From Trichostrongylus colubriformis (lineage: Eukaryota; Nematoda; Chromadorea; Rhabditida; Trichostrongylidae), in contig OZ022258.1 in NCBI GenBank assembly GCA_963978905.1, positions 26,850,716 through 26,914,715 of the forward strand: 64,000 nucleotides of DNA, in the 5' to 3' direction. The notes under the pieces were generated by a model, which made no database searches, was not told where the DNA came from, and saw nothing but the letters and a program-made list of their open reading frames with translations. How positions within the stretch are numbered: position 1 is the stretch's first letter; every line of letters begins with the position of its first letter. Below are positions 18,715 to 64,000 of the stretch, in pieces. Both the position numbers and the translations under genes were made by a program.

Positions 18715-19449
18715 ACGAAGCTTTTGCCCATAACTCAGCATCCTTGTAGTAACTTTCGCATCGCTAGCTGCGGCGATAAACAGCAGTTATCAAGAACTCC
18801 AAATATCAAAATCAATACTAAAGCTTTCAGTTTCACGGTTCGATGCCGATATTGGCCAACCGGCTCAACATGTTATACGTGTGAGTGCTGATAAGCTATG
18901 GTAAATACCATTCAAAAGCTGAGTTAAAGGCACATTCAAGGATTACTCTGAGTGAGTAAAGCGCAAAACTATAAAATCCGAGATGATGAGGAATACGCCG
19001 ACAAAGAAAGCTCCGGAAAAAGTCCCCGAAAATGGCAAAAATAAGGCCTCCTGTCATCTGGCCTTGGACGAGTTTACCGCGTGAAAACGAGCCTTCGAAT
19101 CAGTTCCCACTGGCTGGTGAAGGAACTCTAGGATATCACCTGTTTCCTCAGGTCAACGTATCCTTCATCATTGGCATCTCTTCCTTATCTTACCTTATCA
19201 CGCAAATCGTAGGCTTCATTCGCCTTATTGTTGCCATCATTGTCACCGTCATTGCCAACAATCTGAAATGGGCGCGCTCGAGTTCCAGGGTACGGTCCAG
19301 CTGATTTCAAGAGCTCCGCGCGCTGCAATGACTCATCATCGCGCTTCGATATGTGCACAGCCTCCCTGCCCGTTTGGGGAACTATTAGGTCATGTGAAAG
19401 GGCTGCAATGTTTTCCTAATCCTGGAATGTGCCTTTGAGGTGAAAGGGG

Positions 19450-19518
19450 TGTCGGTAGTGTAATGGATTAGCACATATTCCCGAACGGATGAAGTGTGTG
19501 TTCGAGTCCCGTCCGACA
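19450..19518 (+). repeat. tRNA-like sequence, copy 2
   Basis: It is about 90% identical to 18645-18714 by eye. It keeps the acceptor-like ends, a D-arm-like GTGTAATGGATTAGCAC and the B-box-like GTGTTCGAGTCCC. The anticodon stem is broken (CATAT against GGATG). The same downstream flank CTCATAACTCAGCATCCTTG follows. Confidence 0.45.
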
Positions 19519-19974
19519 TCAAAGCTTTTGCTCATAACTCAGCATCCTTGCAGTAACCAATGAGTGTCACCGCTCCAGGGTCAATACGAGAAGTTAAACG
19601 GGCTCAGCCACATGTGCCTTCCAACGCTCCTTATCGTATCTTACCAACCGTTATCAAATTGGATCACACATGGCTATTGTCCCCGTCCATCCTACATAAC
19701 ACCTATGAGTGTCAGTGCTCCAAGTCATGGCGAAAGGCGGAACAATTTTGATGGCATTCGCTTTCAGAGCTCCTTATCAGCTCCCATCAGCTGCTATCAC
19801 TTCTAGTCCACCACCGCTAGGATCTCCCTACCAGCCACTATATCACTTGTGATATTAGGTATCCCAACATTGCTGTGAAGGGAGATGCGAATTTCGTGAC
19901 TATCATGCCGACACAGCATATGCACAGGTATACTAAGCGTATTAATTACATAGGGAATGGGTTTTGCAGAGCTT

Positions 19975-55500: not shown

Positions 55501-58500
55501 AACGTTGTTTCGCACGTCTTTTCCACGATACCCTAGAGCAGTGTAACTATTACATCGTCTTTTGAAGCGCTTTGTTTTTTATGAAACCAGAGCATGAAAA
55601 TTATTACCGCTTACCGTATGCCCACTCAATTTGAGGGGGAGAACAATCAGGAGGTGGTTGCTCAGCGATCGGATCTATGCTCGTTATAGAGACGGGAACT
55701 GGGACAGCAACCGACCGACCGGCTATTTGTATTTGAAGCACATGTGACGAAGCATTGAATATCGGCTCTTTGTCATTGTACCTACAAATATTCTTTAGAG
55801 TAATGAGCCACATTTCGGTATAATTTTTATTAATTTAATGAGTGGTGTAAAAACTGTGATAATTCATGATTCAGAAGAAAAATGAGAATTTGAACCTAAG
55901 CACTCTCAAATTTAAAACCAAAGCAAATCTGGGAATTCTCAGCATCACTGGTTTATTCTTCACGTCAAGTGATCTTTGAGTAAATATTACATACATTTTT
56001 TCTCTCCATAACTTTTTTATCATTATTTTGTAGCTTAGTACTGGTTTGAAAGCACTATTGCATTTAGTATTATTGGTAGGCTTGCCTTTCAGAACCAGTA
56101 GATTCTTGGTGAGTGACTGTTCACGTTCACTTCTTGTGCCGCTACCGTAGGCCACAACACTCGACCAAGCCCATTTGGGTTTCTTTGGTCAGCTGACCGT
56201 GAGCTCAAACGGCGTGGTGTGGGAACGAGCTGGCGTAGCCGGTGATGGCGCAATGTGACGATGTCAACTGATATTCAAGGATAATGCCTCAAGCGCCCTA
56301 TCAGTGCAATCAGCATTGCTGCCTGGTCAGAGCGTTTAGCTGACTTCCACGGTTTCAGGCCTGAAGAAGGCGTTAAACGCCGAAATATCGCAAAAATATT
56401 CCGAAAGCTTTCAGGACTTTTGAGGGGTCTTTTGAGTCTTTTGAATAAATATTTCAGAGTCTCAATTGTTGTTGAACATTCAGATATCATGAGACTTCGG
56501 AACAGCACAATATTAAAGGAGAAGCCGTTGACCCTTGCCGAGGGAATGCTCTATGTGACGCTTGTTACGTACGTTTAGTGCGATGGGCAAATGTGACAGG
56601 TATGTGTAGGTTATCTTGTTCGGGTTGCAAGATTTTTTTGTAGAAGAAAATTTAAATACTACCTCTTGATCCCCTGGCCACCCCCAATTTCCCGAAGTCG
56701 GAAAACTGAATTTAGCCGAAAATTTGTACGGAGGGGTGAGTCGACCCCTGTGCGCGAATATCGTAATCTTTTTGCGCAACAACACGTAATTCGTGTGGTA
56801 CGGAAGTCTCTTCGACCTGGTATCCTCCCCTTGTGAGTAATGTTACTTGTTACAAATAAAGCGGCAAAGTAAATGATTGGTGCGTAAAGGATAGTTATCA
56901 GTATAAGGAAACGTTCGGAAATGAAACGACAGCACTTACTAGCAATGAAAGACAAAATGCAAGAAAAACTTATAGGGTTTGCTGCCCTTGCCCCCCTTCC
57001 TGCAGACCAGGAAAAGCACCAGTACGCCACGGTGCCCGCTTCTGCCTCACTAGCGGCTATGCTAATGGCAAAGGGCCTTGCCAATGAGATACCACAGGCA
57101 AACTTTGACCCCTTCTAACTCGCTTCGATTGGCATTTTGCAATTTTGGGTTTTACAATTATAATCAGTACTTGGAGCTTTATCGATCCATCAGAGTCTCA
57201 GTCTGAAGTCCCATGGGGAGTTGAAATCCTTCTCTTCTTACAAGGGAAGGTATTTTACTTCCCATGAAACTTTGAAGTGAGACCCGGGGGGATCGATAGG
57301 GCTTCGAACGCTGATTATAACTGTGAAAAAAAACTGCCAAATGGCATCCTGAAGCGAGTTACGAGGGGTCAAACTTTGCCTGTGACTTGCCTGTGACATC
57401 TCAATGGCGAGGCGCTGCGTCATCAGCATAACTAGCGAGAGCCAGTAATGGCCTCCGTGCTCAGTGGTAGTGCCCCGGTTCTGCAGGCACGAGGTCGTGG
57501 GTTTGCTTCCCGCCGGTGCGGCTTTTTTTGTATTTTGTGTTTCATTGTCAGTAAGTGCTTTTCCTTCACTTCTAAATGTTTCCTCGCATGATATTGGCGC
57601 GTGGGGGGTCGAATTACCCCTATGTGCAAATTTCCAGCCGGATCCAGTTTTTGGCCCAACTTCGGAGAATTAGAGGTGGCCAGGGGTTAAGTAGGAGTTT
57701 TTGATTTTCCTTTCACAAAAAATCCTGCAAGATGAACAAGATAACCCAAACATACCATCACACTTGCCCACCACACTAAACGCACGTAACAAGCGCCAAA
57801 TAAGAGTTGCTGGGCAAGGGTCAACGACTACTCCTTTGTTAAATAGGTTGCCAGCCAATAGCCCATCAATTTTTCCGAGGTTCAGTCAAATTTTCGAATA
57901 GGCTGAAAACTTGTTTCATAGGGTAATTTGACGCCTGAACACGAAAATCACACTGGTTTTGCGTGAAAACGTATGGTCGTGCGCTATGGGCTCCCAAACA
58001 TGCCATGAAATGGTATTACTCTTTTTTTTCAGAAAACCTTCATAACTTCATTAATGTAATTGCTTGACATATTCTGAATACAGATTTGAAATCAGCATTC
58101 AAAATCGCGTACAGCGGTGTTTTATTGCAAATGGCCATTTCGACAAACCGTCTGATGGCAAAGTGCCTCGCCAATGAGGTGTCACAGGCAAAATTTGACC
58201 CCTCGTAACTCGCTTCAGGATGCCATCTGGCAACTTTGGTTTTCACAGTTATAATCAGCGTTCGAAGCTCTATCGATCCCCTGGGTCTGATTTCAAAGTT
58301 CCATGGGAAGTAAAATACCTTCCCTTGTTAGTGGAGAATTCAGATCGCTCTTGATGTTTCGAATATGGAACAAAAGGCAGCACAATAAACAACGAATAAA
58401 TGTGATTATTGTGTACGTGCATGTTTTTACACAAAAAAAGACAATATCGATATGAAGAACAGACCCAGTACTCGCGTGACTCCTCGGTGGGCTGTGCAAA

Positions 58501-59440: not shown

Positions 59441-59653
59441 CTGAAAACATTCTGAAAAACTTTATATGGACCTATTTCATCAAAATTTGTGACTATTCGA
59501 AACAATGGAGGATCAAATGATCGCAAAATCAGCATTCTCCCCTCTTTCGTTGTTTCTCGGTTGACGAATGCGTCAATCTGTTCAGTGGTAGTATAATTTT
59601 GCAGAATGGTATAAGCGCCATTTTCAAAACAAATTAAGAAAAGAATCTTCTTT

Positions 59654-60344
59654 AAGTATCCAAGTTCGACTCTCCATAAATCTTGGCATTGTGTTCGTAT
59701 ATATGTGATTCTTCTTGAAGCCGTAACCAAGATGTTATTTAGTTTTATTCGGCTAACGTTTCGGCCTAGTGGAAAAGGATCGTGGGTGAGTCAAAGATCA
59801 TTTGTGATTCTATCCGTTCAAAAACCAAAGTAAGGCTTCAAAATAAGTTTACCAGATTAGTAGATTTGGAAAGGTGGAGGCATTTTGGATTAACGCCAAA
59901 AACCCTAAAATGAATAGGAAAGATGAGTGCATAGCCATAACAAACGAGCTTGCCCCATTTCCCAACCTGTGTGGGCTAAAAAACGCCATCGGCTTCATGC
60001 CGGAGGCATTTTGGATTAGCGCCAAAAACCCTAAAATGAATAGGAAAGATGAGTGCCGAAGGGTCGGGTCATCTGAAGCCACCCACTAAGTCAGAATAGC
60101 TGTGGTCTCAGCGATAGCTGGTTGTGCTTACAGGTTGGTTCCCACTACGGTTGTGATTTGCGACTTTTTTCTAAACTCTCCTAGTCTAGGTAGAACTGTT
60201 TTGTAAGTTTGAAATGGTGATTGGGGGATGAATCGCATCTATCTTTGGCTTTCCAGGCTCTGACGAAGGCGACTAGGCCGAAACGTTAGCCGAATAAAAC
60301 TAAATAACATCTTGGTTACAGCTTCAAGAAGAATCACATATATA
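59654..60344 (+). mobile_element. Penelope-like element fragment, rearranged
   Basis: 59873-59920 and 60003-60057 are two partial direct copies of the ORF tail EAFWISAKNPKMNRKDEC. The 3' region with TCTGACGAAGGCGACTAGGC and TTCAAGAAGAATCACATATA follows (60255-60344). An inverted copy of the last 70 bp lies at 59699-59770. A 12-bp direct repeat AGAATCTTCTTT at 59642-59653 and 60345-60356 may be the target duplication. Confidence 0.8.
60256..60291 (+). ncRNA. hammerhead-ribozyme-like core, Penelope-like 3' end, copy 1
   Basis: GGCT (60256-60259), CTGACGA (60260-60266), A, GGC-GACTAG-GCC hairpin (stem II), GAAAC, GTT (to 60287), AGCC (60288-60291). GGCT and AGCC can pair as stem I around a cleavage site after GTT. 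Stem III is only the self-complementary ACGT, which would need a dimer. There is one extra A between CTGACGA and stem II compared with the textbook core. Penelope-like elements are known to carry such motifs. Activity is not shown. Confidence 0.5.
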
Positions 60345-60504
60345 AGAATCTTCTTTGTTTCTTGGCTAAAGTTTGGTATGGATGCACAATGCGCGCCCAC
60401 ACTGGCTACATCTTTCACTTAGAGACTTTTTTGAATCACTCTGCGAATAGAGTTTTTGGACAATTTATAGGTGGTTGTATAATTGTGCAGAGCAGTGTAT
60501 ATGA

Positions 60505-61257
60505 AAAGATGTCAAATATAATATTTTGCAGAGATTCAGCGTGAAAAGACAAGATATTGACGTCTTTGGAAAATCTGATATAAAATGGCTCCGAGTCTTG
60601 AAGAGAGGAATTATGGAGCAAGGATGGACAAAATTATTTCACAAATGATGCCTAGAGTTCTAACATGATATTTCATAGTACTTTTAACAGTATAAGGTCA
60701 CAACCATGATACCCAAACAAAGCGATGATGTGAAATAATTACGTCCTAAACGAGGAAACAGATATAATAGAGCAAATTTAGCTATTTTTCGAATTTTTTA
60801 GCACTTAAGCGACGGAAGTGCGATGGTGTATCTATTCGGTTCCGTCTCCAAAATACTCTATAGGAGCAATCCGCTGGGATGAGGTCGTGGGTAGCTGTCC
60901 ATCGTGGGTAACATTGTTGTTTAAAGAATTATAGCTCTAGCTCGCTCCCTGGTTTTATAGTTCAGTCCCATAGTTAACGGTACTCATTTCACCTCAGTTA
61001 TTGATGGTGGTGAACAGCACAATGACCCCCGTAACTACTCGAAGGAAAGAAGCTCCCAGAAGATGCAAATTCTCCTTCATTCGCTTTTTTCCGTTAGAAC
61101 TTCATTTCCGTTTGAAATTCCAAAAGACAATGTCAGGGTATGGCCATTCCATTAAGGAGCTGACCCTTACAACCCTATCCTAGCCCTATCTAAGTGGGAC
61201 ATCAGTTAAGTTATCCCTATATAGGTATCAAGTTTTTCTCGATGCGACTTTTGCATT
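60505..61257. other. no feature recognised
   Basis: The sequence between the Tc1 right end and the possible exon at 61258 shows no repeat or protein that I recognise. Confidence 0.3.
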
Positions 61258-61440
61258 TTGCTTCCAGATGCTGACGCAATCCATCGACTCGACGGTCGGA
61301 GTGGACGGAGCGAGGACAAAAGCTCAGTGGATGGGACCGTTACGGACGACTGTACTGACCAGTCGTCTGGAACGTCACCGTGCTCTTCCCTTTTTATGTG
61401 TCGCCTGATTAGTGTATTGCTCGGTTCTAACATACTACTA
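61258..61440 (+). other. possible unassigned exon
   Basis: A polypyrimidine tract with a strong acceptor (ttttgcttccag) ends at 61267. It is followed by an open, acidic/Ser-rich reading of about 45 codons (HRLDGRSGRSEDKSSVDGTV) and then a hydrophobic run. The opposite strand is also open. I do not recognise the product. It may be an exon of another gene or chance. Confidence 0.2.
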
Positions 61441-61654
61441 TTGTTGTGTATTAAATCGGTTGTTGTTGTGAAGTTGGATATTTTATGGTGTGAACTTGTG
61501 GCACAGAGGCCAGTCTTGGATTTAACAAGGACGGACAATAAGAGGGTGTACCCATCTTTCAGTATAAATATTGGGTTGAGGAATAAGTTCCCGCGGTTTC
61601 CTTTAATCCTGTTTTCACAATGATCCCTTCTTATTTCGTTGAAGCTTATAAATG

Positions 61655-62370
61655 ATTTCAATAGAGCTTTTTTTTGCTCTACAAAATGCTACTATTTGTT
61701 TTTCGATTCCTTCGACTACCTAATATTTATGAGGTTTGGAAATGAAGTAAGCTGAAAGCAAAAAATGGCATAGGCGCACCTCATCTTTCTCGTCTGCCAT
61801 CGAGATCAAAAAATCTTGTGTATATGTTCTCGATTGAGCTTTTTCAGCTCTACAGAATGGTACTACTTTTTTTTCAAATTGCCCACCTTTTTGCGTTTCT
61901 AAAACTCACAAATGCAGTACTCGCAAAAGTGTGCACTTTTGTTATCTTCTCTTCCTCTCCTACCATAGAGATTGGAGAGAATGTGCATATATGCATTCGA
62001 TAGAGCATTTTTTGCTCTACGAGATGATACCTTTCTTTTTTGTATTCTCTCATGTTTTAGCATGTAGGAATAATTCCACCTATTTTTCAATTCGAAATTG
62101 CGTAATAAAAACGAATTCTCGTGGTAGAATGTTTGTATAGTTTGATAGAGCTCTTTTCGCTCTACGAGTGGTGTTAACGGTTTTTGTTCGAATTGATTTC
62201 TGCTATTTTTTAGATCATTTAAAGTCGACGAACTCGAGCAATTTCGTCACATGATATCAAAAATGCTCAATTTCGTCGACTTTTGATTTAAAAGACTGCA
62301 AAAATTATTTCGAACAAAAATTGTTAACACCACCTTATAGAGCAAAAAGAGCTCCATCAAATGATACAAG
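61655..62370. repeat. tandem hairpin repeat and terminal palindrome
   Basis: The hairpin ATAGAGC-T-rich-GCTCTA recurs near 61660, 61831, 61998 and 62143, at spacings of about 170, 167 and 145 bp, with related sequence between. The last copy opens a palindrome: 62138-62250 (GATAGAGCTCTTTTCGCTCT, GTGGTGTTAAC) is mirrored at 62251-62365 (GTTAACACCACC, AGAGCAAAAAGAGCTC). The Penelope-like ORF relic starts about 40 bp further on. Confidence 0.75.
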
Positions 62371-62484
62371 TACTCTGCCAAAAAAAAACATTTTGAGACA
62401 GATACCCTAGAGCTAGCCCGTAAGACAGCGCAGGAGAATGGCTATCCCACCACCACCAAAGAGCAGCCTCTTCCTGGACCACCC

Positions 62485-63107
62485 GTGAGAAGGCATGCGA
62501 GATCTGGGGTCAACGAAGGCGAAAAGATACCGTTCTGCATGTCTTTTATAGCCGATGCCATTAGCTCGGCCGTTAGGAGGGCTTCACGCAGGTGTGGTCT
62601 CGACAATGCAGTCCGGGTGGTCGAAATTCCCCCAGCGTCCCTCAAGCAACAGCTAGTCCGGAACAGTGGCTATGATCGCATATGTGCAACCTCCCATTGT
62701 GTGATCTGTCCTAATGGACGAGAAGGTGACTGCCAGGAGTCAGGTGTGGTCTATCTGATACCTTGCAAACTCTGCGGAGATGGGTATATGGAGAAACTAG
62801 GCGGCCTCTGTGCAGTAGAATCAAGGAGCACCTCGATGGTCTAAGGAGATCGAGGCCTGAGACCCCTCTGGGTGCTCACCGCTTGCAATGCCATGGAGAT
62901 GTGGAGTTTGAGGTAACTGTAGGGATTCTGTCACGCGAACCCCAGACTCCAGCGCGCAAAACTTTGGAGGCATTTTGGATTAGCGCCAAAAACCCTGAAA
63001 TGAATAGGAAAGATGAGTGCATAGCCGAGCTTGCCCCATTTCTCGACCTGTGTGGGCTTCATGCCGAAGGGTCGGGTCATCTGAAGCCACCCACTGAGTC
63101 AGAATAG
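62485..63107 (+). pseudogene. PLE C-terminal Zn-finger-like and GIY-YIG endonuclease, frameshifted
   Basis: Visible in order: a linker (VRVVEIPPASLKQQLVRNSG), a Cys cluster C..SHCVICPNGREGDC near 62690-62735, and the GIY-YIG start GVVYLIPCKLCGDGY near 62742. After an apparent one-base loss at about 62790 the frame changes to ETRRPLCSRIKEHLDGLRRS. The tail is TPLGAHRLQCHGDVEFEV, ARKTLEAFWISAKNPEMNRK and ELAPFLDLCGLHAEG. The arrangement is that of Penelope-like elements, whose C-terminal endonuclease makes the target nick. The YIG motif is destroyed by the shift. Confidence 0.9.
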
Positions 63108-63266
63108 CTGTGGTCTCAGCGACAGCTAGTTGTGCTTACAGGTTAGTCCCGCCATGGTTGTGGTTTGCGAGTTTTTTTCTAAATTCTTCTGGTCTGGGTA
63201 GAACTACTGTTTTGTAAGTTTGAAATGATGGTTGGTGGATAAATCGTATTTATCTTTGGATTTCCA

Positions 63267-63302
63267 GGCTCTGATGAAGGCGATAAGACCGAAACGTTCG
63301 CC
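63267..63302 (+). ncRNA. hammerhead-ribozyme-like core, Penelope-like 3' end, copy 2
   Basis: GGCT (63267-63270), CTGATGA (63271-63277), A, GG..CC stem II around CGATAAGA, GAAACGTT (63291-63298), CGCC (63299-63302). Stem I is weaker than in copy 1 (T against C at the first pair) and stem II has only two or three pairs. This copy is probably degenerate. Confidence 0.4.
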
Positions 63303-63595
63303 GAATAAAATTAATTAACATTTTGGCTACGGCTTCAAGAAGAATCATATATAAGTAGCCATGATCTTTTTATTAGTAGTAAGTCAATCGTCTCACGAAG
63401 TAAACCCACTCATGCGTGACCTAACCCCACACTAATCACCGGAACACTTGCAACACACTGCAGTATATTACAGGGGGTGAGGGTCTCCAGTTCCAATAGT
63501 GTACTGTAGGTGTACGGTAGTATAATTACAAGATTACTCAGGTCACTTTGCACATCACCTCGCACTAGCCTTGCCTATGAGATGGCCCCACTTAA

Positions 63596-64000
63596 AGGAA
63601 TCGCCCACGGAAAATGAGTTTTTGTTTCACCCATATATATATGTTGTATTTGCCTAATGTTGGCCTCATGCAAAATTTCACGCGAAAAAATGTGAATCTG
63701 GCTGAGATACAGCACCACAAAGTGCGGTCTCAGTGGGCGGGGCCTCCGTGTAAAAGCCTCGTCCTGTCTTCCGCCGCCGTTGGGAACGGAGAGTGAGACT
63801 GTTTGTGTAACCTTCTGTTCCTACAATGCGTCTCCGACCAGGTACGAGGCTTTTACAAGGAGGCCCCGCCCACTGGGACCGCACTTTGTGGTGCTGTATC
63901 TCAGCCAGATTCACATTTTTTCGCGTGAAATTTTGCATGAGGCCAACATTAGGCAAATACAACATAAACATATGGGTAACACAAAAACTCATTTCCCGTG
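63596..64000. mobile_element. palindromic MITE, family B, copy 4, nearly intact
   Basis: It follows a TTAA (63592-63595) with AGGAATCGCCCACGGAAAAT. The left arm 63607-63770 and right arm 63835-64000 are almost perfect reverse complements (CACCACAAAGTGCGGTC / GACCGCACTTTGTGGTG; AAAATTTCACGCGAAAAAAT / ATTTTTTCGCGTGAAATTTT). The right terminus is cut by the window end. It is the least diverged of the four copies. Confidence 0.92.

What the first reader, a model, noticed from the sequence alone, without database searches (positions are those of the whole stretch)
60256..63302. Hammerhead-ribozyme-like cores in two Penelope-like 3' ends
Both PLE 3' ends carry CTGA(C/T)GA, a short hairpin and GAAACGTT. 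In the 60256 copy, GGCT before the core is complementary to AGCC after GTT, exactly where stem I should form. The would-be stem III is the palindrome ACGT, which suggests a dimeric form. Hammerheads are known in PLEs; these look like a nematode version with one extra A before stem II, which may weaken activity.
Basis: partly seen in the sequence, partly recalled or inferred. Interest (0 to 1): 0.75.

Follow-up and report, generated by a model that had tools for sequence, protein, structure and literature searches.

The report
Nematode Penelope-element mini hammerhead ribozymes
Two broken jumping-gene copies in this worm DNA end in a tiny motif shaped like a self-cutting RNA; related copies elsewhere in the genome keep its paired stems, so it is very probably real, and it looks like a nematode version of a ribozyme already known from this class of jumping genes.

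Summary
The motif is real. At 60256-60291 and 63267-63302 two separate, broken Penelope-like elements (PLEs) carry CTGA(C/T)GA, an extra A, a hairpin, and GAAACGTT. Copy 1 has both stems; copy 2 has lost one pair in each. The window's assembly (331 Mb) has 263 and 338 matches to two core patterns, against 20 and 15 for reversed controls. Among 63 distinct forms from fetched loci, 91.2% of stem cells pair, with 63 double-sided changes against 27.2 in shuffles. Two related ORFs match RT and GIY-YIG; in three relatives, hammerheads lie 3.01 kb apart. The extra nucleotide is widespread: canonical spacing gives 21 matches against 15 in its control. A viroid hammerhead has the same insertion. Stem III is only the palindrome ACGU, so cleavage should need a second hammerhead, or help from the PLE protein as reported for a lizard PLE. 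Cleavage is not shown here: L084 begins upstream of the cut site, and none of 46 leader matches begins at it. Supported; a new member of a known kind.

The parts
59653..60348 (+). PLE copy 1: short, internally deleted element with an inverted tail at its left end; ORF pieces matching aa 120-156, then 868-915 of the L084 ORF
   Evidence: tblastn and blastn of L084 against the window; repeats
59653..59770 (-). Inverted copy of the 3' tail (start of ORF, leader, 3' half of the hammerhead), cut off inside loop II
   Evidence: inverted repeat 59694-59770 / 60272-60348, 97% complementary; blastn of L084
60256..60259 (+). Copy 1 stem I, 5' strand GGCT
   Evidence: sequence; stem I covariation
60260..60266 (+). 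Copy 1 core CTGACGA
   Evidence: sequence
60267..60267 (+). Copy 1 extra A between A9 and stem II
   Evidence: sequence; frequent in the genome
60268..60279 (+). Copy 1 stem II GGC/GCC with loop GACTAG
   Evidence: sequence; stem II covariation
60280..60287 (+). Copy 1 GAAACGTT: G12 A13 A14, ACGU palindrome (stem III in a dimer), U17; predicted cleavage 60287|60288
   Evidence: sequence; cleavage site inferred from the type I hammerhead layout (general knowledge)
60288..60291 (+). Copy 1 stem I, 3' strand AGCC
   Evidence: sequence
62400..63344 (+). PLE copy 2: 5'-truncated, starts at about aa 680 of the L084 ORF; two matching stretches in different frames meet near 62790-62802; includes the GIY-YIG end
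63267..63302 (+). Copy 2 hammerhead; stem I first pair and stem II third pair broken
   Evidence: sequence; R1 61.8 bits, but this row is in the model

Best explanation
These are minimal type I hammerhead ribozymes without a stable stem III, in the terminal repeats (pLTRs) of a strongylid-type nematode PLE. In intact relatives one copy lies upstream of the ORF (predicted cut 66 nt before the start codon in L084) and one downstream, about 3.01 kb apart (shown in three loci). Stem I (mostly 4-5 bp) and stem II (mostly 3 bp) are kept as pairs at RNA level (shown by covariation). Two hammerheads, in one tandem transcript or in two RNAs, would pair through ACGU into a shared 4-bp stem III and be cut after GUU, perhaps with help from the PLE protein (inferred). 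That would trim tandem or read-through transcripts to unit length with a short leader before the ORF (inferred). In the window, copy 1 keeps the letters needed; copy 2 is decaying; both elements are fragments.
For: Core patterns far above reversed controls: 263 against 20, 338 against 15. Covariation over 63 distinct forms: 91.2% of cells paired against 79.9% shuffled; 63 double changes against 27.2; score 0.386 against 0.202 shuffled and at most 0.117 with partners slid; the first set of 43 gave 91.0%, 40 against 16.2, and 0.385 against 0.197. Stem I occurs as GGCT/AGCC, GCCT/GGGC, GCCT/AGGC, TGAT/ATCA; stem II as GGC/GCC, GAC/GTC, GGT/ACC. Of 102 core-like matches in the fetched loci and window, 48 have PLE C-terminal coding upstream in the same orientation. 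RVT_1 and GIY-YIG in both ORFs tested. Direct spacing 3,013, 3,015 and 3,016 nt in L026, L054, L084.
Against: No Rfam hammerhead match in the window or 8 related loci. No cleavage was measured. In L084 the match between the two terminal repeats begins 28 nt upstream of the core, so that copy came from RNA not cut at this site, or cut and rejoined. None of 46 leader matches begins at the cut site; 40 of 616 candidates were scored, and most matches are limited by the query itself. Alone, copy 1 is predicted to fold with stems I and II but with the core letters GACG paired too (z -2.15 for 43 nt, -1.31 for 71 nt); copy 2 does not form the hammerhead (z -0.21 and 0.05). The co-fold of two copies was not the proposed dimer. 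A lizard PLE hammerhead was not active without protein and not needed for insertion in vitro (PMC11167929, passages). Core letters were fixed by the search patterns, and much of the covariation goes back to few family-level changes. In L029 the direct spacing is 4,163 nt, not 3.01 kb.
Confidence: 0.75

Rival explanations
1. The fold is a hammerhead, but stem III pairing between two copies is not what activates it: the PLE protein binds the nearby RNA and helps one hammerhead fold (protein-assisted ribozyme).
For: Reported for the Anolis PLE: no cleavage without protein, and GIY-YIG mutants of the protein still support it (PMC11167929, passages). [quoted passage not shown]
Against: Not tested here. 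The ACGU palindrome fits dimers, which are published for PLE hammerheads (PMC6466107, PMC7761336, passages). The two ideas can both hold.
Confidence: 0.35
2. The motif is a conserved PLE RNA structure that serves mainly as a binding or priming site, and cleavage is weak or unimportant.
For: In the Anolis PLE, hammerhead mutants did not change insertion in vitro and reads ending at the cut site were not found (PMC11167929, passages). Here L084 spans the cut site at its 5' end, none of 46 leader matches begins at it, and 26 of those 46 end 31-48 nt inside the ORF.
Against: Stem I pairs across the cut site and the unpaired core letters are those of the hammerhead; but the search patterns fixed those letters, so this is weak.
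Confidence: 0.3
3. The sequence is kept as coding DNA: the frame upstream of the ORF runs through the motif.
For: In L054 (family B) the stop-to-stop frame is open from the TGA of the core into the ORF.
Against: In L084 (family A) the ORF frame is closed by a stop just upstream of the start codon, yet stems and core are the same. Paired changes on both sides of stems are not expected from coding.
Confidence: 0.03
4. Chance: common letters in repeats plus pairing noticed after the fact.
For: Only two window copies, one decayed. A similar pattern has 17 hits in viral contigs, which score at most 15.7 bits with R1.
Against: Pattern counts and covariation. Forms that were not in R1's rows score 19.4-66.3 bits where found; 4 of 20 loci (L093, L095, L096, L097), fetched for the no-extra-A pattern, gave no match.
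Confidence: 0.02

Closest known systems
Minimal type I hammerheads of PLEs (Cervera and De la Pena 2014; not held, known here through passages of reviews PMC6155905 and PMC7761336)
   Same: Position in pLTRs, core, stems I and II, little or no stem III
   Different: An extra nucleotide between A9 and stem II; the published consensus could not be read, so this may be no difference
Dimeric small hammerhead variants of PLEs (Lunse, Weinberg, Breaker 2017; not held, known through passages of PMC6466107 and PMC7761336)
   Same: Palindromic stem III, tandem arrangement of two hammerheads in intact relatives
   Different: Dimer activity not measured here; extra nucleotide as above; the window copies themselves are not in tandem
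Anolis Poseidon PLE hammerhead (PMC11167929, passages)
   Same: Hammerhead at the pLTR-ORF junction of an RT plus GIY-YIG PLE; insertion ends lying inside the start of the ORF
   Different: There the ORF starts at stem II and the cut is 26 bp inside it; here the cut is 66 nt before the start codon (L084)
CChMVd plus-strand hammerhead (PMC3705267, passages)
   Same: Extra A between A9 and G10.1
   Different: A viroid hammerhead, not a retroelement

Membership tests
Type I hammerhead ribozyme | Core CUGANGA ... GAAA ... UH with stems I and II around it, ends open at stem I | tested here: met
   for copy 1; elsewhere the core letters were fixed by the patterns, the stems were not
Type I hammerhead ribozyme | Covariation in stems I and II | tested here: met
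Type I hammerhead ribozyme | Match to Rfam hammerhead models | tested here: not met
   a loopless stem III is the likely reason (inference)
Type I hammerhead ribozyme | Stem II directly after A9 | tested here: not met
   Extra nucleotide in copy 1, copy 2 and most forms; natural precedent in CChMVd
Type I hammerhead ribozyme | Self-cleavage 3' of H17 | not testable with these tools
   needs bench work
Minimal dimeric PLE hammerhead | Stem III absent or very short and palindromic | tested here: met
   ACGU in both window copies; fixed by the patterns elsewhere, so other palindromes were not sampled
Minimal dimeric PLE hammerhead | Two hammerheads in tandem about one element apart | tested here: met
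   3,013-3,016 nt in L026, L054, L084; 4,163 nt in L029; none in L056; not in the window itself
Minimal dimeric PLE hammerhead | Cleavage as dimer | not testable with these tools
   needs bench work
Penelope-like element with GIY-YIG | RT and GIY-YIG in one ORF, pLTRs, tail running into the ORF | tested here: met
   on relatives; the window copies are fragments

The most novel reading that the evidence does not exclude
In this nematode lineage the PLE families share a near-fixed core variant, one extra purine between A9 and stem II with a short loop II and an ACGU-only stem III: a lineage-wide hammerhead tuned to work only in pairs, so that a transcript is cut only when two units lie in tandem while solo and inverted copies stay uncut.
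Probability: 0.2. Interest if true: 0.5.

Novelty: new member of a known kind. Interest (0 to 1): 0.35.

Why it matters
[quoted passage not shown] This genome offers several families with many copies, open ORFs (L054, L084), and a model (R1) that finds the motif in loci where Rfam does not, so conservation, dimer pairing, protein help and the effect of the extra nucleotide could be tested in one species.

Tried and rejected
Rfam: nothing relevant in the window or in 8 related loci. Pattern scan of viral contigs: 17 stretches, at most 15.7 bits with R1, taken as chance. The search for related loci with the PLE fragment in viral contigs: 8 stretches matched a pattern, none a relative; tblastn in phages: no match. 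Pfam on four window ORFs at E up to 1: none. Apparent 5' ends near the edge of stem I (query 30-40) looked like processed templates, but to my eye L106, L107 and L079 have an internal deletion next to stem I, and loci chosen for an intact core cannot show later ends; not taken as evidence. The idea that the window copies are a tandem pair was dropped. Literature: the two key papers are not held. Penelope + hammerhead + nematode gave 4 papers and Penelope + hookworm + retrotransposon gave 3, both seen as listings only; no title or abstract start there is about nematode PLE hammerheads. A search for two motif strings gave 14 papers, none about PLEs by title. I do not claim that nematode PLE hammerheads are unpublished.

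Full report
What is there. Copy 1 of the motif lies at 60256-60291 and copy 2 at 63267-63302. Along the type I hammerhead: stem I GGCT, core CTGACGA, one extra A, stem II GGC-GACTAG-GCC, GAAA, then CGTT and AGCC. A15.1, C15.2, G16.2 and U16.1 form the palindrome ACGU, so stem III has no loop within one molecule. Copy 2 differs at N7 (allowed), in loop II (allowed) and at one pair in each stem (unpaired). The only match to a relaxed descriptor in the window is copy 1, with 0.08 expected per window; the descriptor was written after the fact. Layout and numbering of the hammerhead are from general knowledge.

What carries it. The ORF at 62365-62844 has 14 protein relatives among 40 candidates: 10 Necator americanus, 3 Ancylostoma ceylanicum, 1 Haemonchus contortus. 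From this I infer a strongylid-type nematode; the assembly itself is unnamed (331 Mb, 52 contigs). Two relatives' ORFs, 915 aa (L084) and 919 aa counted stop to stop (L054), match RVT_1 and GIY-YIG. The window's copies are fragments: copy 1 joins ORF parts matching aa 120-156 and 868-915 and has an inverted tail at its left end; copy 2 starts at about aa 680 and changes frame near 62790-62802. Pfam finds no domain in the four window pieces tested.

Anatomy of relatives. Of five loci examined, L026, L054 and L084 have two hammerheads 3,013, 3,015 and 3,016 nt apart in direct orientation; L029 has a direct pair 4,163 nt apart; L056 has none in direct orientation. In L084 the predicted cut lies 66 nt upstream of the start codon (query 68|69 and 135). 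Of 46 leader matches, 26 end 31-48 nt inside the ORF, 15 reach the end of the query, 3 end at query 121-130 just before the start codon, and 2 are short pieces. This is like the pLTR of rotifer PLEs, which holds the first 12 codons, or 22 with the tail (PMC3846280, passages). Numerous neighbours in the listed places are head-to-head inverted pairs, an arrangement also described in that paper.

Tests for RNA structure. CTGAYGAN{4,20}GAAACGTT occurs 263 times against 20 for its reversed control; CTGANGAAGHN{5,20}GAAACGT 338 against 15. Only the first 100 places of each were listed, and I fetched part of those. A first alignment of 43 distinct forms (45 found with A or G after the core and no G at position 17; 2 dropped for length) gave 91.0% paired cells and covariation score 0.385 against 0.197 shuffled. 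A second, without those two limits, gave 91.2% and 0.386 against 0.202 with 63 forms; these are the forms with 13 nt between the core halves, 63 of the 74 unique forms, the other 11 dropped for length. Pair 18-27 is A-U in 32, G-C in 27 and unpaired in 4; pair 6-39 is C-G in 27, G-C in 27, other standard pairs in 2 and unpaired in 7. Much of this is one or few family-level changes. Separate cases are TGAT/ATCA with a different stem II in L058, GGT/ACC in L077, and A-U at pair 5-40 in L027. Of 74 forms, stem II closes 3 of 3 with the extra nucleotide in 55 and without it in 4; stem I pairs 4 of 4 in 46 and at least 3 of 4 in 63; position 17 is T in 61, C in 8, G in 4 (which by the usual rule cannot be cut) and A in 1.

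The extra nucleotide. In one search, whose pattern leaves this position free, 88 of the 100 listed matches have A there (counted by eye). Over the 74 forms it is A in 59, G in 12, C in 3, but some patterns fixed it. A pattern with G directly after the core, as in the canonical hammerhead, found 21 against 15 in the control. I fetched 13 of those 21 places (one as L027, 12): in L027, L090 and L091 the G stands in place of the extra A before the same kind of stem II, and by eye the same holds for L087, L088 and L089. Canonical spacing is seen in L086, with a 4-bp stem II and paired stem I, and in L092, whose stem I is broken. The CChMVd plus hammerhead has an extra A10 at this place; a review says it causes a moderate decrease in trans-cleavage, with C or G much worse and U 3-4 times better (PMC3705267, passages). 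So 'may weaken' is fair, but the variant is tolerated across families.

Does it cleave? Not shown. Copy 1 alone (43 nt) folds at -13.8 kcal/mol (z -2.15) with stems I and II, but with core letters GACG paired to CGUU; with more flank z is -1.31; copy 2 does not form the hammerhead (z -0.21 and 0.05). Co-folding two copies gave -29.4 against -27.6 kcal/mol for two monomers, in a fold that is not the proposed dimer. In L084 the match between the two terminal repeats begins 28 nt before the core, so its template was not cut there, or was rejoined. In a lizard PLE the hammerhead was active only with protein, did not depend on the GIY-YIG active site, and was not needed for insertion (PMC11167929, passages). 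Protein help is therefore a live alternative to, or companion of, the dimer.

Compared with what is known. Minimal type I hammerheads without stem III in PLE pLTRs, acting as dimers, are published (PMC6155905; PMC6466107; PMC7229834; PMC7761336; passages only). This case matches them in place, core, stems and palindrome. The one candidate difference is the extra nucleotide, and I could not read the published consensus to see whether it is general.

Noticed in passing
window 62143-62361: A 219-nt palindromic stretch that scores below the gathering score with the MIR8007 model (61.1 bits, gathering 195); perhaps a hairpin transposon.
   Followed up: no
window 63606-64000: Inverted repeat with 157-nt arms, 96% complementary, running to the window end.
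   Followed up: no
window 57230-58338: Three nested inverted repeat pairs (42-61 nt arms, 89-98% complementary), 794-987 nt apart.
   Followed up: no
window 19449-19520: tRNA match, 30.2 bits, just above the gathering score of 29.
   Followed up: no
L053, L102, L103, L106: Short PLE derivatives with two hammerheads head to head around a 75-142 nt centre that looks largely self-complementary by eye; in L106 several miRNA precursor models score below their gathering scores.
   Followed up: partly
L054: Two family B elements head to head, each with two hammerheads, with a stretch of N between them.
   Followed up: partly
L063:986-1029: A family member with G at position 17, which by the usual rule cannot be cut.
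   Followed up: no
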